64,000 nucleotides of DNA from the NCBI GenBank assembly GCA_037442505.1, contig JBBIPZ010000013.1:5617-69616 (forward strand), given 5' to 3'. The notes beneath the pieces were generated by a model, which had not been told where the DNA came from, did no database searches, and worked only from the letters and a program-made list of their open reading frames with translations. Positions 1,554-32,894 of this stretch are shown here, in pieces. The position numbers and the translations under genes are program-made. Each line of letters begins with the position of its first letter. Within the stretch, counting starts at the first letter, position 1. The DNA comes from JBBIPZ01 sp037442505 [NCBI: Deltaproteobacteria bacterium]. Its GTDB lineage: Bacteria; CALINM01.

Positions 1554-2310
1554 TAAAAAAACAGTTTATTTTGTGGGTGCTGGTGCTGGTGATGTTAAAT
1601 TAATCACTATCAAAGGCAAAGAGTTGCTTGAGACTGCAGATGTTGTTATATATGCTGGTTCGTTAGTTAACAGGGAAATACTTAATTACTGTAAGCCTTC
1701 ATGCGAAATTTACGATTCAAAGACAATGCATCTTGGTGAAATCGTTAGTATTATTGAAAAATCAGTTATGTCTGACAAACTTGTAGTGAGGCTTCACACA
1801 GGTGATCCTTCTCTTTATGGTGCAATTTTTGAGCAGTTTATTGAGCTTGACAAAAGAGGGATTGCATACGAAGTTGTTCCGGGGGTCAGCTCAGCTTTTG
1901 CAGCTGCTGCAGCTTTAAAGAAAGAGTTTACTGTCCCAAACATATCCCAGACTGTCATTTTTACCAGGTTTTCTGGCAGAACATCTGTACCAGAAAAGGA
2001 AAATTTAGAAAACATTGCCAAATTGCGGGCATCGCTTGTGATATTTCTTTCTATATCTTACATTGATGATGTTGTCAGAGCGCTTAAAGCTGGTTATTCT
2101 GTTGATACTCCATGCTCAGTTGTTTATAAAGCATCGTGGCAAAATCAAAAAATTATTTCCGGCACCCTATCTAATATTGCAGAACTTGTTAAAGAGGCTG
2201 GAATAAAAAAGACTGCTTTAATTTTGGTGGGAGAGTTTTTGCGCCCCGACCACTATGCTTATTCAAAGCTTTACGAAAAAGATTTCGAACATGAATTCAG
2301 AAAAAAATAA
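1546..2310 (+). CDS. cbiF: Cobalt-precorrin-4 C11-methyltransferase
   Basis: Tetrapyrrole methylase that methylates C11 of cobalt-precorrin-4 using SAM. The N-terminus VYFVGAGAGDVKLITIKG is the CbiF/CobM signature, followed by ADVVIYAGSLVN and the RLHTGDPSLYGA loop, both diagnostic of this subgroup. The 254-residue length is normal. It overlaps cbiL by 8 bases and its own end overlaps the cbiG start at 2291, consistent with translational coupling in a cbiLFGH operon. Confidence 0.93.
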   Translation: MFDKKTVYFVGAGAGDVKLITIKGKELLETADVVIYAGSLVNREILNYCKPSCEIYDSKTMHLGEIVSIIEKSVMSDKLVVRLHTGDPSLYGAIFEQFIELDKRGIAYEVVPGVSSAFAAAAALKKEFTVPNISQTVIFTRFSGRTSVPEKENLENIAKLRASLVIFLSISYIDDVVRALKAGYSVDTPCSVVYKASWQNQKIISGTLSNIAELVKEAGIKKTALILVGEFLRPDHYAYSKLYEKDFEHEFRKK

Positions 2311-3310
2311 TCTTCGTGTTCTTGGAATGTACATAACTACAAGTGCACATAAGTTATGTACTCAACTTGCAAATAAGCTGTCTTTTTCTGTCGAAGTAAA
2401 AAAATTACCCAAAGACAACTTTCGTAACTTTTTTAAAGAGGCTTTTAAATATGATGTAATAATAGCTGTTATGGCAACGGGAATTGTAGTAAGAGGGCTT
2501 GCCCCTTTCATAAAATCTAAACAAACTGATCCTGCCGTTATTGTTATTGATGAAAAAGGAAAATTTGTTATCAGTTTACTTTCCGGGCATATTGGCGGGG
2601 CAAATATGCTTGCACGAGAAATTGCGAATTTAATTAACGCCACACCCGTCATTACTACAAGTTCTGATATAAATAATCTGCCTGCTGTAGATGTTTATGC
2701 TAAAGAAATGAACTATACAATAAGCGATTTTAAAATTTGCAAAGACGTTGCAATGGCTTTGATTAAAGGCAAGAAAATTCCTGTTTATGTAGAAACTGGT
2801 GAACCAAAACATTTTTTTCGTCAGCCATGTTTCCAATTACTTGATAAAAAAAGCTTTTTAAAGATTGATGGATTAAAGATAGCGGTTTCAGAAAAACTCA
2901 TTTGCTCAAATGATACACTTTATCTGATACCAAAAAGACTGGTGCTTGGAATGGGATTTCATAGAGGACTTGATTTTGAAGCTATGATGGCATTTGTAAA
3001 GTCGCAATTTAAAATAAGAAAATTATTCCTTGATGCGGTAAAAATAATAGCAACTATCGACAAGCGAAACAATGAAAAAGGTTTTTTTACTCTTTGTGAT
3101 ACGATAAAAGCAACTCCCATCTTTTTTTCAGAGAATGAGCTTGCTGCCGTTAGCGCTGTAACGCAGAGTGAAGTTGTAAAAAAATATCATTTTTCCGGAA
3201 ATGTCTCTGAAGCCGCTGCATTGCTTGCAAGTAATCATGGGAAGATTATTGTTTCAAAAATAAAGGGGGGGAATATCACCTTATGCATAGCAAAGGAAAA
3301 ATATTTGTAG
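2291..3310 (+). CDS. cbiG: Cobalt-precorrin-5A hydrolase
   Basis: CbiG opens the delta-lactone ring of cobalt-precorrin-5A and releases acetaldehyde, a step found only in the anaerobic pathway. Visible features are the central VIAVMATGIVVRGLAPFI segment and SLLSGHIGGAN, both typical of the CbiG mid domain, and the C-terminal domain beginning LVLGMGFHRG. The frame extends upstream to 2255, but ATG 2291 gives a normal N-terminus and only a 20-base overlap with cbiF; ATG 2327 is another possibility. The 3' end overlaps cbiH by 28 bases. Confidence 0.92.
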   Translation: MNSEKNNLRVLGMYITTSAHKLCTQLANKLSFSVEVKKLPKDNFRNFFKEAFKYDVIIAVMATGIVVRGLAPFIKSKQTDPAVIVIDEKGKFVISLLSGHIGGANMLAREIANLINATPVITTSSDINNLPAVDVYAKEMNYTISDFKICKDVAMALIKGKKIPVYVETGEPKHFFRQPCFQLLDKKSFLKIDGLKIAVSEKLICSNDTLYLIPKRLVLGMGFHRGLDFEAMMAFVKSQFKIRKLFLDAVKIIATIDKRNNEKGFFTLCDTIKATPIFFSENELAAVSAVTQSEVVKKYHFSGNVSEAAALLASNHGKIIVSKIKGGNITLCIAKEKYL

Positions 3311-16402: not shown

Positions 16403-17662
16403 TTACGCAACTTCTGTTTCTTCTGTGAATGATGTTTCTTCAATTCTCACAGGAGCCTTTGTTACAAAAGTAAGTGTAGCAGCAACAAGCATTAGTCCGG
16501 ATGCTATTAAATAAGCCATTGCGTAAGAGCCGTTTAAATCAGCAATCTTGCCAGCTAAGAGTGGTCCAAAAACGCCACCAACACCCCATGCTGTGAACAT
16601 AATGCCATAATTTAGTCCTAAGTTTTTTGTACCCCAGTAGTCGGCTGTCGTAGATGGGAAAAGTGATAGACACGCCCCATAGCTAAAACCAACTACGGCT
16701 GAGCCAATTGTGAATTGTAAAATAGTTGAGAATTTAGAGAAGAAAAACATTACAACAGCCTGTGTAACACATACGAGGAATATCGTTTTTATTCTGCCAA
16801 TTTTATCTGAAACAAGGCCAGCTAAGAGTCTTCCTGCAGCATTAAAAACAGCAAGCAAGGCAACGAACATAAAACCAATCTTTATCGTGTTGTTAGACTG
16901 CAAAGCTACAATCTTTGCAAGATGGCCAATAATCATAAGACCTGCCGTAGCCGCACATGCATACTCTAACCATAAGAGATAAAATGAAGGTGTTTTTAAC
17001 ATCTCGTCCCAGCCAAAATCCTTTCTTGTAAGTATTGAAGTGGTGTTGTTTTTAGATGCTACTTTTGGAAGCATTGGGTTTGTGATAAACTGAGCCACAA
17101 AAATAGTCACAAATGCAAAACCAATTCCAAGCATACGGAAAGCAGTATTTATTCCGTAATTTGCTAATAGATATTTGCTCAATGGGGCAATATAAACAGG
17201 CGCCAATCCGAAACCACTTACTACTATTCCGGTAATTAATCCTTTTTTTTCTGCGGGAAACCATTTAATTGCGGCAGGTGTTGCGGCTGCATAACCAAGC
17301 CCAAAACCAGTCCCGGCTAATGCCCCAAAACCAACGAGAGCTGGTATAATATTGTCCGGAGATGCAAAACTTGTTACGATCAAACCTGCTGCGGTTAAAA
17401 TAGCACCTGCTGTTGCTACAATCTTAGGTCCAATTTTGTCCTGCAATCTACCTGCTGGCACCATCATTAATGCGAAACATGCTATCGCAATTGTGTAAGG
17501 AAGTGCAGCCTCAGTCTTTGTCCAACCAAAACCACCCTTATCAACCGCTTCAGTAAACTGTTTCCCAAAAATACTCCAGGCATACAAGACGCCCAATGCC
17601 AGATTAAGACACATACCTGAAAATACTACAATCCAACCTTTTTTTTCACTTAAACTACTCAT
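16403..17662 (-). CDS. OFA-family MFS carboxylate transporter
   Basis: A 12-helix MFS permease of 419 residues of the oxalate/formate antiporter family. The N-terminal helix GMCLNLALGVLYAWSIFGKQF is the OFA signature; other family segments are GRLQDKIGPK in the loop after helix 2 and GRLLAGLVSDKIGR in the second half. Likely substrates are small carboxylates (oxalate, formate, acetate, pyruvate); the exact one is not inferable. It is downstream of and co-directional with a Cys-rich miniprotein gene (12-base gap), and both sit behind a sigma-54 promoter beside a two-component system. Confidence 0.88.
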   Translation of the reverse strand: MSSLSEKKGWIVVFSGMCLNLALGVLYAWSIFGKQFTEAVDKGGFGWTKTEAALPYTIAIACFALMMVPAGRLQDKIGPKIVATAGAILTAAGLIVTSFASPDNIIPALVGFGALAGTGFGLGYAAATPAAIKWFPAEKKGLITGIVVSGFGLAPVYIAPLSKYLLANYGINTAFRMLGIGFAFVTIFVAQFITNPMLPKVASKNNTTSILTRKDFGWDEMLKTPSFYLLWLEYACAATAGLMIIGHLAKIVALQSNNTIKIGFMFVALLAVFNAAGRLLAGLVSDKIGRIKTIFLVCVTQAVVMFFFSKFSTILQFTIGSAVVGFSYGACLSLFPSTTADYWGTKNLGLNYGIMFTAWGVGGVFGPLLAGKIADLNGSYAMAYLIASGLMLVAATLTFVTKAPVRIEETSFTEETEVA

Positions 17663-17674
17663 ACTCCCCCCTTT

Positions 17675-17866
17675 TTAAGATATTTTTTTTGAATCATAAA
17701 AATGAGTTTTTTGTTTCTGGTTAAGTAAAATAAAGTTCTGGCAAATTTTGAAGTTAGTTAAACACACGTTAATTATTTCTTTAGCGTCTTTTAAGTTTAT
17801 GTAATCGCTTCCAGCATTACAGCATTTTTGCTTGCTAAAATAGGGACATAAAAAATTTGCTGCCAT
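17675..17866 (-). CDS. Small Cys-rich protein upstream of the OFA transporter
   Basis: A 63-residue protein with five cysteines at 7, 15, 16, 35 and 42 in the pattern CPYF-x4-CCNAG...C-x6-C, with no signal peptide. The coding call rests on a perfect AGGAGG (complement of 17872-17877) exactly 5 bases before ATG 17866 and a sigma-54 promoter upstream; an in-frame GTG at 17872 overlaps the Shine-Dalgarno and is less likely. The Cys spacing suggests a metal- or Fe-S-binding miniprotein. It may modulate or sense for the transporter (inference). I know of no characterised function. Confidence 0.72.
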   Translation of the reverse strand: MAANFLCPYFSKQKCCNAGSDYINLKDAKEIINVCLTNFKICQNFILLNQKQKTHFYDSKKIS

Positions 17867-17895
17867 AAGCACCTCCTCAGGTTTTAAGGATATTT

Positions 17896-17911
17896 TGCAG
17901 TATCTATGCCA
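17896..17911 (-). promoter_or_regulatory. Sigma-54 promoter
   Basis: On the minus strand TGGCATAGATACTGCA matches the -24/-12 consensus TGGCACrN4TTGCW, with the invariant GG and GC separated by exactly 10 bases. A start site is expected near 17886, giving a leader of about 20 bases that contains only the AGGAGG site. It drives the Cys-rich protein and OFA transporter. Confidence 0.8.
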
Positions 17912-17999
17912 TTAAGAGCCAATTTAGAAAAAAATAAATAAGATCAATAATATGTTGTTTTTAGCTGGCATAGTTGACAGCTTTATTAAGATTAAGAAT

Positions 18000-18078
18000 T
18001 TGCAATTTTGCAAAAGGATTTGAATAAATTACAGAATAAGCATTGTTTATGAATGAAAATAGTTTTGCAAATATGCAA
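18000..18078. promoter_or_regulatory. Paired TTGCAA upstream activating sites
   Basis: Two composite sites of identical architecture: TTGCAA-TT-TTGCAA (18000-18013) and TTGCAA-AT-ATGCAA (18065-18078). Their left edges are 65 bases apart, and they lie about 100 and 165 bases upstream of the sigma-54 promoter, the usual range for enhancer-binding-protein sites. They end just before the stop codon of the NtrC-type gene, the obvious candidate to bind them. Confidence 0.55.
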
Positions 18079-18080
18079 GC

Positions 18081-19445
18081 CTATTCACGTTTTAGATCCA
18101 ATTTTTTTATTTTCCTGTAAAGTGTAGCTATATTTACACCTGCTTCTTTTGCAGCAGTGTCAACATTCCAATGGTGTTTCTTTAGAAGTTTGGAAAAATA
18201 CTCTTTTTCAAAGTTAGCAAGTGCGATAGAATAGTCTCCATCTGTTACAATATTTGTCTCAATTAGTTCTTCTTCGAGTGGTAAAAATTGCTTTATAGTA
18301 TCTAATGTTATAAAGTTTTGAGTTTCCAATGCCATCACAGCAGAAACTACATTTTTTAGCTCTCTTATATTTCCTGGCCAATCGTAGTTTATTAAAGCGT
18401 TCATCGCCTCTTTTGTAAATCCGGCAAAGTTTGTGTTAAATGTTTTATTTAAAGAGGCAACAAAATGTGTTGCAAGTAGAGGAATATCTTCTTTTCTCTC
18501 CCTGAGTGAAGGAATATGAAATGTGATACCGTTTAATCTGTAAAAAAGGTCTTCTCTAAAAGTTCCATCTTTGATAGCTTTTTGCAAATCGGTATTTGTT
18601 GCAGAAACAACTCTTACGTCAAGTTTTATGACATTTGTATCGCCAATACGGCGTATCTCTTTTTCCTGTAAAAATCTTAATAAACCCTTTTGTGCTTCTA
18701 AGGAGAGATTGCCAACCTCATCTAAAAAAAGCGTTCCATTGTTAGCCTGTTCAAACAATCCTATTTTGTTATCCATAGCTCCAGTGAAGCTACCTTTTTT
18801 ATGTCCAAAAAGCTCGCTTTCCAGAAGGTTTTGTGGTAGCGCACCACAGTTTAAGGCAATGAATGGTTGATCTTTCCTGTTTGAATTATAATGAATTGCC
18901 TGTGCAATAAGTTCCTTTCCTGTGCCAGACTCTCCTGTGATGAGCACAGGAATATCGCGAGGGGCAATTTTTCTGATTTTGTCTATAAGCTCTTTTATGT
19001 ATTTTGATATGCCAATAATGTTTTCAAAGCTGCCTTTAGCCTGAAGCTGTTCCCTTAACTGTATGTTTTCTTTCAGCAAATCGTTGTGTTTAAAAGCATT
19101 TTTTACCCTCATTATCAGCTCGGGGGATTCAAAAGGTTTGGTAATCATATCGTCAGCGCCTTTCCTTAGCGCTTGAATAGATATATCTACCGTTGCATGG
19201 GCAGTGATTATAATAACGGGCGTTGTAGGACTAAAACGTTTAATTTGTTCAAGTACCTCAATGCCATCCATGCCGGGCATCTTTATATCAGTTATAACTA
19301 ACGAGTGCATGTCGTTTTTAAATGTAGCAACTCCTTCATAAGGGTCATAGCAGGTGGTAACTTTATAGCCGTTGTCAGTTAGTACTGCTTCAACAAGCTT
19401 ACAAAGTGCTATATCGTTATCGATAACAAGAATGCTTTTATCCAT
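18081..19445 (-). CDS. NtrC-type sigma-54-dependent response regulator
   Basis: A 454-residue regulator with three domains: receiver (residues 1-120, phospho-acceptor Asp53 in VITDIKMPG), AAA+ ATPase (about 140-375, Walker A GESGTGKE, sigma-54 contact loop GSFTGA instead of GAFTGA, and FLDEVGN), and a C-terminal Fis-type helix-turn-helix (DTAAKEAGVNIATLYRKI). The kinase gene lies 4 bases upstream in the same operon. It should oligomerise on the TTGCAA-type sites directly downstream of its gene and activate the sigma-54 promoter at 17896-17911. Confidence 0.95.
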   Translation of the reverse strand: MDKSILVIDNDIALCKLVEAVLTDNGYKVTTCYDPYEGVATFKNDMHSLVITDIKMPGMDGIEVLEQIKRFSPTTPVIIITAHATVDISIQALRKGADDMITKPFESPELIMRVKNAFKHNDLLKENIQLREQLQAKGSFENIIGISKYIKELIDKIRKIAPRDIPVLITGESGTGKELIAQAIHYNSNRKDQPFIALNCGALPQNLLESELFGHKKGSFTGAMDNKIGLFEQANNGTLFLDEVGNLSLEAQKGLLRFLQEKEIRRIGDTNVIKLDVRVVSATNTDLQKAIKDGTFREDLFYRLNGITFHIPSLRERKEDIPLLATHFVASLNKTFNTNFAGFTKEAMNALINYDWPGNIRELKNVVSAVMALETQNFITLDTIKQFLPLEEELIETNIVTDGDYSIALANFEKEYFSKLLKKHHWNVDTAAKEAGVNIATLYRKIKKLDLKRE

Positions 19446-19449
19446 CTTC

Positions 19450-20943
19450 TCACCAATTCCTATCTATGGGCAAAGACACTACAACCAGAGTGCCTTTCCC
19501 AAGCTCACTTTGAATACTAATGTTTCCCAGATGTTGTTTAACAATCTGCCTTGCGATAGCCAGACCCAATCCTGTGCCTTTTGGTTTTGTCGTAAAAAAT
19601 GGTTCAAATATCCTTTCTAAATGTTCTTTTGGAATACCTTTCCCTGTATCTTTGAAAAGGATGTTAACAAAGCCTTCTAACCCCCTTTCTGTTGAGATTG
19701 TAATTTTCCCAGAACCTTCTATGGCTGAAGCAGCATTAAAAATAAGGTTAATTGCTACTTGTTTTATCTGGTCTTCATCTGCCATTATTAACGGCAGATC
19801 CTTGTCAAAATGCTTTTCAATATCAATATCTTGGATATCAGGATGATTGGATGCAAAAGATATAATCTCATCAAGTACGGCGTTTAAGTTTATCACTTTT
19901 AAAACAGGATTGGGGATTCTTGCATAGTTCAAAAAATTTTCTACAATTTTTTTGCATCGCTGACTTTCTCTTTTTATCTCAATGACGTAGTTTTTAATCT
20001 TTTCGTCATCGGCAAGTTTTGACTCGAGGAATGACGAGTAGCCAAGTATCACACCAATAGGATTGTTAATTTCATGAGCGACTTCAGAAGCTAAAACGCC
20101 TAAAGAAGCCATCTTTGATTGTTGATTTATTGATTTTTCAAGCTCTTTTTGTTTTGAAATTAAATCAAACATCCTGTTGAAGTTATCTGCCAATTCACCT
20201 ATTTCGTCGTTGTTTGTTATATAAATTCTTTCGTTTATTTTGCCTTTCTTAATCTTTCTTATCACTTCAATGATAGTTTTTATTGGGTCAGTAAGTTTAT
20301 CAGACAGTTTAAAAACAAAAAAAACGGAGAGAATGATAGACAGAATGACAACAATGATTGTGTTTAGAAGGATTTTGTCCTTAATTTTATTAGCCTCTTT
20401 ATAAAACTCATTTTCGTATGAACCAACGGCAACAATCCACTGCCATGGAGCAAAATAGAGATATCTTACTATTTTCATACGTGCATAATTTTCACCGGGA
20501 TTTCTCCATGGGTAACGTATCCAACCATTTTTGTTTTTTATCATCTCCCTTATGAAAAAAGAGCCATTGTAATCTTTTGCATCAATGATGCTATCACCTT
20601 CACGTGCAGGATGAACAGTTAATGTCCCTTGCATATCAATACAATAAATGTAACCTGTATCTCCTACTTTTTTTTGTTTTAAAATCTCTTTTAGTAACGT
20701 TAGTTTTTCAGGGTTTTTTGTAGGAGAACCATAAGTTTCGTTGTGAAGTGTCAAAAGGCCAACAGAAAATTGAGCCATGTGGTCTAAATCAGCCATACTG
20801 GTCTCTGTGATGCCAAGATATGCCTGCATATTTGCAACGTATCCTACAATAGAGGCAACCAGTATGATTGGGATAACTACCAATGGCAAAACCAGAGCCA
20901 GAATCTTCCATCTAATTTTTAAGTTACTGAAAAATTTTAGCAC
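19450..20943 (-). CDS. Cache-domain sensor histidine kinase
   Basis: Inner-membrane kinase of 497 residues: TM1 (about 14-34), a periplasmic Cache domain (about 60-185, with GDTGYIYCIDMQGTLTVHP and WQWIVAVGSY), TM2 (about 193-212), HAMP, a HisKA domain with the phospho-His in VAHEINNP, and an HATPase domain with N, G1 (DTGKGIP) and G2 (GTGLGLAI) boxes. Cache sensors of this type commonly bind small carboxylates, which fits the OFA transporter the circuit controls. The start is GTG, preceded by GGGGGGAGA. It is divergent from the serine genes. Confidence 0.95.
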   Translation of the reverse strand: MLKFFSNLKIRWKILALVLPLVVIPIILVASIVGYVANMQAYLGITETSMADLDHMAQFSVGLLTLHNETYGSPTKNPEKLTLLKEILKQKKVGDTGYIYCIDMQGTLTVHPAREGDSIIDAKDYNGSFFIREMIKNKNGWIRYPWRNPGENYARMKIVRYLYFAPWQWIVAVGSYENEFYKEANKIKDKILLNTIIVVILSIILSVFFVFKLSDKLTDPIKTIIEVIRKIKKGKINERIYITNNDEIGELADNFNRMFDLISKQKELEKSINQQSKMASLGVLASEVAHEINNPIGVILGYSSFLESKLADDEKIKNYVIEIKRESQRCKKIVENFLNYARIPNPVLKVINLNAVLDEIISFASNHPDIQDIDIEKHFDKDLPLIMADEDQIKQVAINLIFNAASAIEGSGKITISTERGLEGFVNILFKDTGKGIPKEHLERIFEPFFTTKPKGTGLGLAIARQIVKQHLGNISIQSELGKGTLVVVSLPIDRNW

Positions 20944-23869: not shown

Positions 23870-26421
<2,552 letters not shown>

Positions 26422-26443
26422 AAAACTACATAGGGGAAAACAT

Positions 26444-27862
26444 TTGAAGTCGCAAAATATCACCCCTGTTTTTAAAACTGTACTTGCAGATTTAGATACT
26501 CCAGTTTCGTGTTTATTAAAGCTAAGAAAGGCGTATCCAGAAACTCCCGCATTTTTACTTGAAAGTGTTGAAGCAAAAGAAAAGCACGGCAGGTTTTCTT
26601 TTATCGGTTTTGACCCATTTTTAACGTTTAGAACAAAAGGGAAAAAGGTCAAGCTTTCGGGTATAATCAACGAAGAATTTGATGCTGAACAACCTTTTGA
26701 TGTTCTTAAAAATCTTGTTAAGTCATTTTGCCTGCAGCCCTTTTCAGACTCTTTGCGTTTTTCTGGAGGGGCAGTTGGTTTTGTTGGTTATGATATGATA
26801 AGGTTTTTCGAGAAAATACCTGATGTTAAGGCTCAATCCCTCAAAATTGATGATATGTATTTTATTTTACCTCGGCAGATGGTCATTTTTGATAACTTTA
26901 CGAATAAGATGACCCTTGTTGTGTTTAACATTAACAACGATGTAGATGCGAATAGCATGTTGGACCAACTCTACAAAATCGTAAGAACACCACTCAAGAT
27001 AAACAGGCATTCTCGTTTTGTTTTAGGGGAGATGAAAAGCAACACAAAAAAAGAAGAGTTTGAATCTATGGTATGCAGGGCTAAGGAGTATATATGCGCC
27101 GGGGATATATTTCAAGTGGTGCTATCACAACGTTTTACTGCGCAGGTTGATTGTGATGATATTGACCTTTATAGGGCTTTAAGGGTAGTAAATCCGTCAC
27201 CCTATATGTTTTTTTTAGATTTTGTCGAGTATAGCCTTATTGGCTCTTCACCAGAAATACTTGTTCGTTTAGAGAATAGCCAGATAGAGGTTAGACCTAT
27301 TGCCGGAACAAGAAAAAGAGGAGAAACCGAAAAAGAAGATCTATTGTTAGAAGAAAGTCTACTCTCAGACGAAAAAGAGTTGGCAGAACACGTTATGTTA
27401 GTGGATTTAGGTAGAAACGATATAGGAAGGGTTGCAAAAATTGGAACGGTAAAAGTGCCAGAGTTTAAGATAATCGAACGGTATTCACATGTTATGCATA
27501 TTGTATCTTCTGTGACGGGAGAACTTAAAGATGGCTTAGACGGTTTTGATGTGTTTAAAGCCACATTCCCGGCAGGCACGGTAAGTGGAGCACCAAAGAT
27601 ACGCGCTATGGAGATTATAGAAGAGTTAGAAAAAGAAAAAAGGGAGTTTTACGCTGGTGGAGTGGGCTACTTTGGATATAACGGCAATATTGACTTTTGC
27701 ATTACAATAAGAACTATGCTAAAAAAGGGTAAAAAGGTGTTTATTCAGGCAGGTGCCGGAATTGTAGCGGATTCTGTGCCAGAAAACGAGTATTTAGAAA
27801 CTATAAACAAGGCAAAAGCTCTGATGCAGTCGATAACAAATCTTAAGGAGATTATAGAGTAA
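26444..27862 (+). CDS. trpE: Anthranilate synthase component I
   Basis: Chorismate-binding subunit of 472 residues. The N-terminal PAFLLESVE carries the LLES motif that binds tryptophan, so feedback inhibition is expected. The catalytic half has the usual [36 protein letters not shown] and [15 protein letters not shown] blocks. TTG 26444 is the likely start: AGGGG lies 7 bases upstream and purA has already ended, whereas TTG 26405 overlaps purA and has no Shine-Dalgarno. No leader peptide or attenuator fits in the short gap. Confidence 0.95.
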
Positions 27863-27864
27863 AG

Positions 27865-28458
27865 ATGCTACTAATGATTGATAACTATGACTCTTTCACG
27901 TATAACCTTGTTCAGTATTTAGGTGAGCTGGGGGAGGAAATAGTAGTTTTCAGGAATGATGAGATAACTGTAAAAGATGTTTTACAGTTGAAACCAGCGA
28001 AGATTGTTATATCGCCGGGTCCATGTAGTCCTAAAGAGGCAGGGAGCTCTGTCGAAATCATAAAACATTTCGCAGGAAAGATACCGCTTTTCGGTGTGTG
28101 TCTGGGGCATCAGGCGATAGGATACGCTTTTGGAGGAGAAATTGTAAGAGCAAAATGCCTTATGCACGGCAAGGTTTCATTGATTTTTCACGATGGGAAG
28201 ACAATCTTTAAAAATATCGAAAATCCTTTTGAAGCAACACGTTACCACTCACTATCCATTAAAAAAGAGACATTAAGTAACGAGTTTGAAATATCTGCAT
28301 GGACACAGGATGGCGAGATTATGGGGATTAGACATAAAAAGTTTCTTGTGGAGGGGGTTCAGTTTCATCCCGAATCCATTCTAACAAAAGAAGGTAAAAG
28401 GATTTTAAAAAATTTTTTAGAGCTTTCACAACGCTTTTGGGAGGATAAAGGTGATTAA
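27865..28458 (+). CDS. trpG: Anthranilate synthase component II (glutamine amidotransferase)
   Basis: A 197-residue GATase1 subunit that supplies ammonia to Trp[26 protein letters not shown], nucleophile Cys in [15 protein letters not shown] and the His/Glu pair in QFHPESI. Because pabA-type proteins are identical in fold, it may also serve 4-aminobenzoate synthesis. It begins 2 bases after trpE and overlaps trpD by 8 bases. Confidence 0.95.
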
Positions 28459-29506
28459 AGAGGCTATCAATAAGGTAGTAGATAGAATAGACCTTGATGA
28501 AGAAGAAATGATAATTGTTATGGAAGAAATAATGACTGGAGAGGCTACCCCAGCTCAGATTGGGGCATTTATTACTGCGTTAAGAATGAAAGGAGAAACA
28601 GTTGACGAAATAACTGGAGCTGTAAAGGTAATGAGAAGAAAGGCTACAAAAATCCCTGTTGAAGGTGTTGACGTTGATTTAGATAGAGATGATATCAATA
28701 TAGACAGAGAGACGATTATTGATACATGTGGGACTGGTGGTGACGGAACAATGACCTTTAATGTATCTACTGCGACAGCGTTTGTTGTTGCTGGTGGAGG
28801 CATTAAGGTTGCTAAACACGGCAACAGGTCTGTATCAAGCCTTTGTGGTAGTGCTGATGTGTTGCAAGAGTTGGGGGTAAATATAGAGGCTACGCCAGAC
28901 ATAGTCGCACGTTGTATAAAAAAGGCAGGGATTGGATTTTTATTCGCCCCCATGCTTCATGGGGCTATGAAGTATGCGATTGGACCAAGAAGAGAGATTG
29001 GTATCAGGACAATATTCAATATACTTGGCCCACTCACAAATCCTGCATCTGCCAGGCACCAGTTATTAGGCGTTTACAAAGAATCACTGTGTGAGACACT
29101 TGCACAGGTACTTTTGCGCTTAGGAACAAAAAGGGCAATGGTAGTTCATGGCATGGATGGGATAGATGAAATATCTATAACGAAGGACACTAAAGTTGCA
29201 GAAATTAAAGATGGCAAAATAAAGGTTTACGAAATTAATCCGGTTCATTTTGGATTAAAGATTCACGAATTTAAGGACTTGAGAGGTGGTTCTGCATCGG
29301 ACAACGCAAGGATAATAAGAGACATCCTTACAGGAAAAGAAAAAGGTGCTAAACGTGCTATTGTGGTTCTTAATGCAGCCGCAGCATTTTACGTGGCAGA
29401 TAAGACAAAAAGCATTAAAGATGGTGTAAAATTGGCAGAAGAAGTGATTGATTCTGGCAAAGCTTTAAAAAAATTAGAGATGCTTATAGATATCAGCAAA
29501 GGATGA
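28451..29506 (+). CDS. trpD: Anthranilate phosphoribosyltransferase
   Basis: Attaches PRPP ribose-phosphate to anthranilate. The 351-residue protein shows [18 protein letters not shown], the PRPP loop [17 protein letters not shown] and KHGNRSVSS. There is a small charged insertion ([16 protein letters not shown]) before the glycine loop. The start is GTG within the end of trpG, preceded by GGAGGATAAAG; the stop overlaps trpC. Confidence 0.96.
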
Positions 29507-30297
29507 AAATGTTTTTAGAAACTGTGCTAAAAGAAAAAAAAGCAAAGGTTAAGGAATGGAAAACCTCTGTTTCTGTTTCAGAACTAAAAGAAAGCATGCA
29601 AGATGTAGAAAAACGACCATTCTATAATGTTTTTGCAGAAAGGTGTGCGAATGCAGTTAAGATAATAGCAGAGGTGAAGAAGGCATCCCCATCTATGGGT
29701 ATATTAAAAGAAGATTTCAATTTAGAGCAGCTTGTTTCAGCTTACAACGAAGGTGGAGCTGCTGCCATTTCTGTAATAACGGAAGAAAAGTTTTTTTCAG
29801 GTAATATTCAGTTGTTGAAAGAGGTTAAGAAGCTAACATCTCTACCTATACTCAGGAAAGACTTTATTGTTGATGATTATGAGATATATCAGGCAAAGGC
29901 TTTTGGTGCTGATAGTATATTATTGATAGCAGAGGCATTAGAAAAATCGCAGTTATATGATTTTACTGCTTTGGCAAAGGAAATAGATTTAGATGTGCTG
30001 ATAGAGCTTCACAGTTTAAAATCTTATGAAGATAAATTGTTAGATATAAAGGATTTTCTGCTGGGAATAAACAATAGGGACTTATATAGCCTTAAAGTAG
30101 ATCTTTCTACATCAGAAGAAATTTTGAAACATATACCTGAAGACCAGAAGGTGGTTATAGAAAGCGGTATCAAAGACAGAAAAGATATAGAAAGATTTAT
30201 TCAGTTAGGGGTGTCAAACTTCTTGATAGGAACAAATCTTGTCCTTTCTGAAAATCCTGCTATGATGCTTAAGATGCTAAATGGTTTAAATCAATGA
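29503..30297 (+). CDS. trpC: Indole-3-glycerol-phosphate synthase
   Basis: A TIM-barrel of 264 residues that closes the indole ring. The diagnostic [39 protein letters not shown] and [12 protein letters not shown] blocks are present. ATG 29503 overlaps the trpD stop (ATGA); ATG 29509 has better spacing to AAAGG and may be the real start. It is monofunctional, with trpF as a separate gene. Confidence 0.95.
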
Positions 30298-30902
30298 TAA
30301 GGGTAAAAATTTGCGGAATTACCAGACTTGAAGATGCTCTTTACGCTTCGTATTTAGGGGCGTATGCCTTAGGTTTTGTGTTTTACGAAGGTAGCAAGCG
30401 TTTCATATCAGCAGATGACGCAAAAAATATAATTGAAGCGTTGCCACCTTTTCTGGTTAAGGTTGGTGTGTTTGTTGATGAAAAGCCTGAGAAAATGTTT
30501 AAGCTTAGCGAATATGTTGGTTTAGACAGGATTCAGATTCACACTAACAATCCTGATGTTTATAACAATATCTCACCTGACAGGATAATAATGGCATACA
30601 GAATAAAGGATAAAAACGATGTTGAGCTGGCTAATAACTCTAAATTTTTTCCCTTACTTGATAGATTTGATCAAAAAGAGTATGGGGGAACAGGCAAGAG
30701 TTTTGATTGGAAATTGTTAGATGAAATAAAGAGAGAGTATATTCTTGCAGGTGGCATCAATATCAAAAATATTAACGAAGCTATCGCATTAAATCCTTAT
30801 GCAATTGATATCTCTTCTGGTGTTGAGGCAGAACCAGGCAAAAAAGACCACAAAAAGATGTTTGAAATTTTTAAAAAATTAAGAGAAAATCAAAAGGTAT
30901 GA
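30294..30902 (+). CDS. trpF: Phosphoribosylanthranilate isomerase
   Basis: A TIM-barrel of 202 residues: [15 protein letters not shown] holds the catalytic Cys, followed by GVFVDEKPE, an atypical [11 protein letters not shown], and [10 protein letters not shown] and [14 protein letters not shown] near the C-terminus. It performs the Amadori rearrangement between TrpD and TrpC. It overlaps both neighbours by 4 bases. Confidence 0.95.
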
Positions 30903-32098
30903 ATTTTAAGGAATTTCCGGACCAAACAGGTTATTTTGGCAGTTATGGAGGAGTGTTTATTCCAGAAACGCTTATGCCAGCAATCCTCGAGTTGCAGGGA
31001 GCATTTACTAAATACTCCAGGGAGCGTCGCTTTCAGAAAGAGCTACGTTACTACCTGTCTCATTATATTGGTAGACCCACGCCATTATATTTCGCGAAAA
31101 ACATCTCAAAAAAGTATGGTTTTAAGTTGTATCTCAAAAGAGAAGACCTCTGTCATACTGGTGCGCACAAAATAAATAATGCGATAGGACAGGTGCTTCT
31201 TGCAAAAAAGATGGGAAAGGGAAGGATTATAGCCGAAACGGGTGCAGGACAACATGGAGTAGCTACAGCAACTGCATCCGCTTTATTAGGGTTAAGATGC
31301 CGTATTTATATGGGGACAGAGGATATGAGAAGACAATCTCTAAACGTCTTCAGAATGAAATTGTTGGGCGCTGAAGTGGTTGGTGTAGATAACGGAAGTA
31401 AAACATTAAAGGATGCTATAAACGAGGCGTTGAGAGACTGGGTTACAAACGTTAAAGATACACATTATGTCATTGGGACTGTGTTTGGCCCTCATCCTTA
31501 TCCTTTGATGGTCAGAACGTTTCAATCTGTGATTGGTGAAGAGGTGCTTAGACAGATTAAGAAAAAAGAGGGGAAGTTGCCAGATGTTATTGTTGCCTGT
31601 GTTGGTGGTGGTAGTAACGCAATGGGGATATTTTACCCATTTCTTGAGAACAAGAGTGTTGAACTGATTGGTGTTGAAGCTGGAGGATTGGGAATTGAAA
31701 CAGGCAAACATGCTGCAAGATTTGCAACAGGTAAGACTGGCATCTTTCAGGGCACGAAAAGCTATGTTTTGCAAAACGAAGATGGACAGATACTAACCAC
31801 ACACTCGGTCTCTGCTGGTCTGGATTATGCGAGTGTTGGTCCTGAACACTGTTTTTTAAGAGACGTAAAAAGGGCAAGATATACCTATGCTACTGATGAG
31901 GAAGCTCTTTTTGGCTTTTATGAGCTTTCAAAGGAAGAGGGAATTATACCTGCTTTAGAAAGCAGTCATGCGATAGCATATGTCTTAAAAAACAGCAAAT
32001 TTTTTAAAGACAAGCTTGTTATTATCAACCTCTCTGGTAGAGGCGATAAAGATGTGATGCACGTGAAAGATATCAAGGGTGAAAATGAACAAAATTGA
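30899..32098 (+). CDS. trpB: Tryptophan synthase beta chain
   Basis: PLP enzyme of 399 residues of the TrpB1 type: [16 protein letters not shown], the Schiff-base Lys in [26 protein letters not shown], and the phosphate loop GGGSNAMG. It condenses indole and serine to tryptophan; the serine pathway genes at the head of this gene run supply the co-substrate. The N- and C-terminal contacts for TrpA look intact. Confidence 0.97.
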
Positions 32099-32894
32099 TA
32101 AAGTTTTTGAAAAGCTAAATAGTTCTAAAAACAAGGCGATAATTCCTTATTTAACCGGAGGAGATCCAGATATTGACAGGACGCTAAAACTGATGCAGTT
32201 TTATGCAGAGAATGGAGCAGATATTATCGAGATAGGCGTGCCATTTTCTGACCCAATGGCTGATGGTCCAGTAATTCAGGCAGCAATGGAAAGGGCTTTG
32301 AAGGCTGGAACAACTCTCAAATCTATACTAAATTTAGTTAAGCGTTTCCGTAGAAACTACGATACCCCTTTGGTCTTGATGGGATATATGAACCCTTTTT
32401 ACGCTTATGGACTGGAGAGATTTTGTAAAGATGCTAAGGAGGCAGGTGTAGATGGCATTCTAACTGTTGATATGCCACCTGAAGAGGCAGAAGAGTTTGT
32501 TTCGTATCAGAGAAAATATGATTTAACTCCTGTATTTCTTGTTACACCTGTTACAAATGAAGATAGGATTTTAAAAATAAAAAAATATGCTACAAGTTTT
32601 GTTTACTTTGTTTCTGTTACTGGGGTTACTGGTGAGAGAGTATCACTTCCTGCTGATACAGAAAAAAAACTCATTGAGATAAAAAAACTAATAAATATGC
32701 CAACAGTTATAGGTTTTGGTATCTCTTCGCCTGAAATTATAATCAGTTTTTATGACATTGCAGATGGTTTTGTTATAGGAAGTGCCCTCGTTAAAAGAGC
32801 TGAGAGGATCTGGTCAAGCACAGAAAATGCCCGTGATTTTGAAAACTTTTTTAAATCCCTTGCATTTGCCTGTCATAAAGGTAGAATTGCATAA
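32085..32894 (+). CDS. trpA: Tryptophan synthase alpha chain
   Basis: A TIM-barrel of 269 residues that releases indole from indole-3-glycerol phosphate. The catalytic Glu and Asp are in [20 protein letters not shown], followed by [15 protein letters not shown] and the mobile loop. ATG 32085 is preferred: CAAGGG lies a few bases upstream, while GTG 32079 is part of that site. The gene overlaps trpB by 14 bases and completes the tryptophan set. Confidence 0.95.

What the first reader, a model, noticed from the sequence alone, without database searches (positions are those of the whole stretch)
16403..20943. Complete sigma-54 two-component circuit controlling a Cys-rich miniprotein and an OFA transporter
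Seen: Cache kinase and NtrC-type regulator in one operon, two spaced TTGCAA-type sites just after it, a sigma-54 promoter with exact 10-base GG-GC spacing, then a 63-residue Cys-rich protein and an OFA permease. Known: Cache sensors and OFA permeases both commonly handle small carboxylates. Inferred: a self-contained carboxylate sensing and uptake system in which the miniprotein is a new component.
Basis: partly seen in the sequence, partly recalled or inferred. Interest (0 to 1): 0.75.

Follow-up and report, generated by a model that had tools for sequence, protein, structure and literature searches.

The report
Acetate uptake switch with cysteine tag
A bacterial sense-and-import circuit, most likely for acetate, includes a tiny cysteine-rich protein of an unnamed family that in other bacteria is joined to two unrelated kinds of transporter, which points to an undescribed way of tying a transporter to its own regulator.

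Summary
On the minus strand at 16403-20943 lie a Cache kinase, an NtrC-type regulator, two perfect TTGCA-N4-TGCAA palindromes, a sigma-54-type promoter, a 63-aa four-Cys protein and an MFS transporter. Relatives conserve the circuit. Upstream of the output gene in 32 loci the palindrome occurs 31 times in 15,950 bp (0.047 expected; 16 of 32 loci have it).

The miniprotein belongs to a family without a Pfam, NCBIfam or PDB match; four Cys are invariant in 21 of 21 aligned members. Of 28 loci, 15 encode it free. In 13 it heads a longer reading frame: 11 continue into the MFS transporter (6 through a HisKA domain) and 2 into a SatP/AceTr acetate permease behind an orthologous kinase and regulator.

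That swap, a C2/C3-carboxylate Cache pocket and an acetate-CoA ligase beside one homologous transporter favour acetate, although NCBIfam names the transporter 'L-lactate'. The head is most likely a cytoplasmic metal- or Fe-S-binding domain that couples transporter and two-component system, comparable to STAC in CrbS. Its fusion to transporters elsewhere is seen in sequence; the coupling role, the metal and the substrate are inferred. Nothing was assayed.

The parts
19450..20943 (-). Cache sensor histidine kinase (sCache_2, HAMP, HisKA, HATPase_c), GTG start
   Evidence: Cache domain aligns with 2QHK, 4EXO, 5G4Y, 4K08
18081..19445 (-). NtrC-type sigma-54 response regulator with GSFTGA loop and Fis-type HTH
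18065..18078 (-). upstream activating palindrome 1 (regulator-distal from the promoter)
18000..18013 (-). upstream activating palindrome 2
17896..17911 (-). sigma-54-type promoter TGGCATAGATACTGCA
   Evidence: direct reading; not above chance alone; conserved position
17675..17866 (-). 63-aa four-Cys miniprotein (transporter-head family)
   Evidence: ribosome site
16403..17662 (-). MFS transporter, SfMCT-like (NF049980), probable acetate uptake

Best explanation
An acetate (C2/C3 monocarboxylate) sensing and uptake circuit. The Cache kinase senses acetate outside the membrane and phosphorylates the NtrC-type regulator (inferred from domains and pocket residues). The regulator binds the two TTGCA-N4-TGCAA sites and drives sigma-54 transcription of the miniprotein and transporter genes (supported by footprinting across lineages, not assayed). 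The transporter imports acetate (inferred). The miniprotein is a cytoplasmic four-Cys domain, probably binding Zn or an Fe-S cluster (inferred from four invariant Cys), that works at the transporter; its most likely job is to couple the transporter to the two-component system. Joining of this domain to transporters is seen as fused reading frames in 13 of 28 loci; in the window the two proteins are separate, and the coupling function is inferred.
For: Palindromes: 31 in 15,950 bp upstream in 32 loci, 0.047 expected, 1 in the other 464,583 bp. Promoter-like sites: 16 of 32 at up to 2 mismatches, 0.35 expected. Orthologous HK (44-60% in the best-scoring segment) and RR (50-63%) adjacent in 21 of 28 loci; MFS or SatP transporter adjacent or fused in 22 of 28. 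Recognition-helix motif N-x-[AVS]-T-x-YRK in 24 of 24 regulators at 45% identity or more, three of them Nitrospirota. Cys head fused to a SatP/AceTr permease in L115 and L116 behind orthologous HK and RR: AceTr_1 161.5 and 191.7 bits, cut-off 50. Head-HisKA-MFS in 6 loci, PF00512 above cut-off in 6 of 6. Carboxylate-bonding Tyr, His, Tyr and Lys of the acetate- and propionate-binding Cache domains present by my reading of the alignment (residues from passages of PMC3831638 and PMC5062169). Carboxylate-holding residues Y119, N276, R280, Y331, F359 of SfMCT in 31 of 31 transporters. Acetate-CoA ligase directly after the MFS of L012. Ligase homologues in 3 of 3 relatives, 1 over cut-off; rpoN in 3 of 3.
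Against: NCBIfam names the transporter L-lactate, above cut-off in 6 of 6 tested. 16 of 28 Cys loci lack an exact palindrome, among them L077, L078 and L080, which also lack a promoter-like site, and G009's own locus. 7 of 28 lack HK-RR and 6 of 28 lack a transporter beside them. Nitrospirota circuits L003, L004, L015 do without the miniprotein, so it is not essential to the circuit. Two regulators (L076, L080) did not match the GxFTGA pattern. The SfMCT proton-site His250 is kept in 11 of 31 and Asp378 in 13 of 31, though both in the window protein. In CrbS/CbrA, kinase activation was reported not to depend on transport through SLC5 (abstract of PMC5715377). Both structure models of the miniprotein were poor. 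L012 has no Cys head and lies in another clade.
Confidence: 0.5

Rival explanations
1. The circuit serves L-lactate, as the NCBIfam name says; regulators and head work as above.
For: NF049980 SfMCT above cut-off (416.2 of 320 bits); SfMCT is an L-lactate/proton symporter (PMC6573034 passages); a sigma-54 two-component lactate regulator is known, LurR (PMC6456213 passages); McpP with the same Cache pocket also binds L-lactate (PMC5062169 passages).
Against: Only about 181.8 bits to SfMCT itself; pocket residues L145, F335, C362 changed to F, L, W in 30 of 31; the AceTr swap behind the orthologous regulator; acetate-CoA ligase beside L012; LUD lactate-utilisation domain in only 1 of 3 relatives.
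Confidence: 0.2
2. The head does not talk to the two-component system: it is a metal, oxygen or redox gate (or a stability factor) of the transporter alone.
For: Four invariant Cys; fusion to two unrelated transporters; plain linker without HisKA in 5 fused MFS genes.
Against: HisKA domain between head and MFS in 6 fused genes; head genes lie beside orthologous HK-RR in 21 of 28 loci.
Confidence: 0.3
3. The miniprotein is a chance reading frame.
For: No family match.
Against: Homologues with four invariant Cys, strong ribosome site, fused frames.
Confidence: 0.01

Closest known systems
CrbS/CrbR acetate two-component system, kinase with SLC5 transporter and STAC domain
   Same: Acetate response and a small domain of unknown role between a transporter and kinase parts (passages of PMC5715377).
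   Different: There one protein holds SLC5, STAC and a full kinase, and CrbR is LuxR-type. Here a separate Cache kinase, a sigma-54 regulator, and a four-Cys head on MFS or AceTr; the HisKA heads lack HATPase_c.
LurS/LurR of Desulfovibrio
   Same: Sigma-54 response regulator controlling a monocarboxylate permease (passages of PMC6456213).
   Different: LurS is a PAS hybrid kinase and the LurR sites read like GTCCACTTTTTCAGAC, unlike TTGCA-N4-TGCAA. Proteins were not compared directly.
SfMCT (PDB 6G9X), L-lactate transporter
   Same: Same family by NF049980 and the best PDB match; carboxylate-holding residues kept.
   Different: Three pocket residues changed; no Cys head in the chain matched.
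PscD, McpP and Adeh_3718 Cache domains
   Same: Carboxylate-bonding residues and fold family.
   Different: Those are chemoreceptors; here the domain is on a histidine kinase and one Trp is Tyr.
DctA-DcuS transporter co-sensor
   Same: Working model: a transporter reports to its kinase (start of abstract of PMC3892338).
   Different: No Cys or HisKA head on DctA and no sigma-54 activator there (recalled, not from a call).

Membership tests
Sigma-54-dependent two-component system (NtrC class) | Receiver, Sigma54_activat AAA and HTH_8 in the regulator | tested here: met
Sigma-54-dependent two-component system (NtrC class) | GAFTGA-type loop | tested here: met
   window GSFTGA; pattern GxFTGA in 22 of 24 orthologues
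Sigma-54-dependent two-component system (NtrC class) | rpoN in the genome | tested here: inconclusive
   window genome not held; present in 3 of 3 relatives
Sigma-54-dependent two-component system (NtrC class) | RpoN-dependent transcription | not testable with these tools
   needs an experiment
SfMCT L-lactate transporter (NF049980) | Model score over cut-off | tested here: met
   416.2 of 320 bits
SfMCT L-lactate transporter (NF049980) | Ligand-pocket residues as in SfMCT | tested here: inconclusive
   Y119, N276, R280, Y331, F359 kept; L145, F335, C362 changed
SfMCT L-lactate transporter (NF049980) | Carries L-lactate | not testable with these tools
   needs uptake assay
Oxalate/formate antiporter subfamily (TIGR00890) | Model score over cut-off | tested here: not met
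   229.8 of 374.85 bits
C2/C3-carboxylate single Cache domain | Tyr, His, Tyr, Lys bonding the carboxylate, two Trp around it | tested here: inconclusive
   four bonding residues present by reading of the alignment, one Trp replaced by Tyr
LurSR | PAS hybrid kinase and LurR-type sites | tested here: not met
   Cache kinase without receiver; different palindrome
STAC/SLC5 transporter-kinases | SLC5 transporter and full kinase in one chain | tested here: not met
   MFS or AceTr; window proteins separate; HisKA without HATPase_c in fused forms
Any named family for the miniprotein | Match in Pfam, NCBIfam or PDB | tested here: not met
   single weak Pfam matches at E 0.035 or worse among 21 members, none in NCBIfam for 4 members, PDB best E 0.63

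The most novel reading that the evidence does not exclude
A portable four-Cys (Zn or Fe-S) head, with or without a phosphoacceptor (HisKA) domain, is the coupling element of a new kind of transporter co-sensor. It goes with one regulator pair rather than one transporter, and rides on unrelated acetate permeases (MFS and AceTr). In the MFS fusions a retained internal ribosome site would let one gene make headed and headless transporters, so that a fraction of the permeases reports to the kinase.
Probability: 0.3. Interest if true: 0.78.

Novelty: new variant of a known kind. Interest (0 to 1): 0.62.

Why it matters
If true, it adds a second portable domain, beside STAC, that ties nutrient transporters to two-component signalling. 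It gives uncultivated bacteria a recognisable acetate-uptake circuit with a diagnostic DNA site, and suggests that a database name (L-lactate MFS transporter) is too broad. The fusions, above all those with HisKA, make the question of how a transporter talks to its kinase testable on one polypeptide.

Tried and rejected
Chance ORF for the miniprotein: rejected by conservation. Oxalate or formate as substrate: TIGR00890 not met and no supporting neighbour seen. Larger regulon: of the exact palindromes away from the locus, loci were fetched for three in G001 (L027, L034, L040), two in G009 (L029, L036), three in G003 (L030, L037, L041), two in G006 (L031, L038) and two in G005 (L032, L039). None has a sigma-54-like site of up to 2 mismatches beside it except L032, whose site and palindrome equal those of the MFS locus and which ends before any gene. 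Sites on G001 C91, C95, C161, G006 C82, C110, C113 and G005 C141 were not fetched. Structure: two AlphaFold jobs gave mean pLDDT 61.1 and 52.3, too poor, so no fold search was run. Promoter alone: not above chance.

Rows dropped before the count of 28: L061-L063 (E 0.005-0.009); L024, L025 (E 0.025, 0.044); L082-L085 and L086, L087 (E 5e-4 to 0.008). L073's regulator hit (38%) was dropped from the 24. L011 was translated out of frame and its row there is unusable. The column for SfMCT D257 differs between and is not used.

Literature: the listings show no title or abstract start about this Cys domain or a HisKA-MFS fusion. Of papers, I saw passages of PMC6573034 (and its section 8), PMC6456213, PMC4641369, PMC3831638, PMC5062169, PMC5715377 and PMC13316224; only the start of the abstract of PMC3892338.

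Full report
What is there. Four genes lie on the minus strand: HK 20943-19450, RR 19445-18081, miniprotein 17866-17675, MFS 17662-16403. Pfam gives sCache_2, HAMP, HisKA and HATPase_c for the kinase; receiver, Sigma54_activat and HTH_8 for the regulator; MFS_1 for the transporter; nothing for the miniprotein. Between regulator and miniprotein lie two perfect palindromes TTGCA-N4-TGCAA, the only ones in 64 kb (0.27 expected), then TGGCATAGATACTGCA, with the GG-N10-GC of sigma-54 promoters. The promoter alone is not above chance in the window. Miniprotein and MFS have strong ribosome sites (-13.4 and -11.2 kcal/mol) and are 12 bases apart.

Conservation of the circuit. A scan with the MFS protein gave 21 loci. 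L001 and L002 have kinase, regulator, two palindromes, a promoter-like site, miniprotein and MFS in the same order; in L002 the kinase frame is broken into several ORFs. The third, G009 (L026 and L081), has the same gene order and a promoter-like site, but no exact palindrome. Nitrospirota loci L003, L004 and L005 have one palindrome each and L015 two, with promoter-like sites of 2-3 mismatches, and the MFS follows without a miniprotein. L003, L004 and L015 have kinase and regulator upstream; L005 is cut off before them.

The miniprotein family. A 4-row model found 20 of 297 genomes at E up to 0.01 in the phylum of G260 (the genome of L021, a MAG titled Deltaproteobacteria; phylum not named by the tool); 17 were kept. 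A 21-row model found 22 of 395 genomes and 24 places at E up to 1e-4: the same 17 and 7 new places. The phylum of G253 gave 1 of 235, weak, and 12 genomes of other loci gave 0 of 12. The 28 loci counted are the window, L001, L002, L081, L064-L080 and L112-L118. Four Cys are invariant in the 21 aligned: C-[PR]-[FY]-[FY], a second Cys 8 or 9 residues after the first, about 18 residues, then C-x6-C. Pfam gave only isolated weak matches among 21 members, best E 0.035; NCBIfam none for 4 members; PDB best E 0.63.

Free and fused forms. In 15 of 28 loci the domain is a free small protein. In 9 of these (L064, L066-L072, L113) an 84-aa membrane-type protein follows, and in 8 of the 9 (not L069, at a contig end) also a 350-aa polytopic protein without family. 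In 13 of 28 the domain begins a longer open frame. Eleven run into an SfMCT-like MFS: L073, L075, L076, L114, L118 with a plain linker; L074, L077, L078, L079, L080, L117 with a HisKA domain between, above the PF00512 cut-off in 6 of 6 and without HATPase_c. L115 and L116 run into a Gpr1/Fun34/YaaH permease, AceTr_1 at 161.5 and 191.7 bits (cut-off 50). In 11 of 11 MFS fusions a strong Shine-Dalgarno site with ATG remains at the transporter start (mean -9.5 kcal/mol against -2.3 at 205 other internal Met codons; 11 of 11 against 11 of 205 at -6 or lower; p 1.5e-8; the best of the nearby Met codons was taken, which favours the junction). At the three possible starts looked at in the two SatP fusions it is weak (-2.7 to -3.5). 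The MFS fusions may thus give headed and headless transporters. In L001 and L002 miniprotein and MFS frames overlap by 8 bases. The loci are related to each other, so such counts are not independent events.

One regulator, several transporters. Orthologous HK (44-60% in the best-scoring segment) and RR (50-63%) lie beside the Cys gene in 21 of 28 loci (not L067, L069, L070, L073, L079, L113, L118). An MFS or SatP transporter is adjacent or fused in 22 of 28 (not L064-L067, L069, L112). In genome G859 one Cys locus (L112) has HK-RR, the other (L113) the transporter, and both carry palindromes. Over 32 loci (28 and the four Nitrospirota) the exact palindrome occurs 31 times within 500 bp upstream, in 16 of 32 loci (12 of 28 with the Cys domain, 4 of 4 without), against 0.047 expected from a first-order Markov model and 1 in the other 464,583 bp. 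Promoter-like sites with up to 2 mismatches occur in 16 of 32 (0.35 expected), with up to 3 in 26 of 32 (1.59 expected). The recognition-helix motif N-x-[AVS]-T-x-YRK is in 24 of 24 regulators; GxFTGA matched in 22 of 24. The MFS tree has two deep clades, both with members that have the Cys partner; the tool flags long branches.

Substrate. The Cache domain aligns with 2QHK, 4EXO, 5G4Y and 4K08. By reading, the Tyr, His, Tyr and Lys that bond the carboxylate in 4K08 (acetate) and 5G4Y (propionate) are present, with Tyr for one of two Trp. The MFS keeps SfMCT Y119, N276, R280, Y331 and F359 in 31 of 31, and has F, L, W for L145, F335, C362 in 30 of 31; proton-site His250 is kept in 11 of 31, the window included. 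SfMCT carries L-lactate and not pyruvate (PMC6573034). For acetate speak the AceTr swap, acetate-CoA ligase directly after the MFS of L012 (1016.9 bits, cut-off 724.95), and ligase homologues in 3 of 3 relatives (1 over cut-off) against LUD in 1 of 3. L012 has no Cys head. Lactate is not excluded.

Mechanism. Seen in sequence: the circuit, its sites, their conservation, and the joining of the head to transporters elsewhere. Inferred: acetate binding, regulator binding, uptake, metal binding, the coupling role. The HisKA domain keeps its His box in 6 of 6 without an ATPase domain, which suggests docking on, or phosphate exchange with, the kinase-regulator pair. The layout resembles STAC, a small domain of unknown role between SLC5 transporters and kinases (PMC5715377 passages); no homology is claimed, and that paper reports that activation does not depend on transport.

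Verdict. Observation confirmed; interpretation supported, refined to acetate and to a new transporter-head family. The circuit's core parts are of known kinds; the head and its fusions are what is new.

Noticed in passing
L064:7045-8094 and L067:5923-6174: A 350-aa polytopic protein (best Pfam match E 0.033, below cut-off) and an 84-aa membrane-type protein without family follow the free Cys gene in 8 and 9 loci; they may be another transport component.
   Followed up: partly
L084:1480-1716 and 1922-3010: In a Nitrospirota genome a four-Cys small protein, weakly matched (E 0.006), lies beside a sigma-54 activator of another type.
   Followed up: partly
L082:1471-1662 and L085:1465-1656: 63-aa four-Cys proteins in two Nitrospirota genomes, weakly matched (E 5e-4 and 0.008), that may be distant kin in another gene context.
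   Followed up: no
G009 contig C87:575-5606 and G001 contig C78:19678-23870: Two divergent acetate-CoA-ligase-like genes side by side in each of two relatives of the window.
   Followed up: no
window 26405-32894: By eye a tryptophan biosynthesis cluster on the plus strand; ordinary.
   Followed up: no
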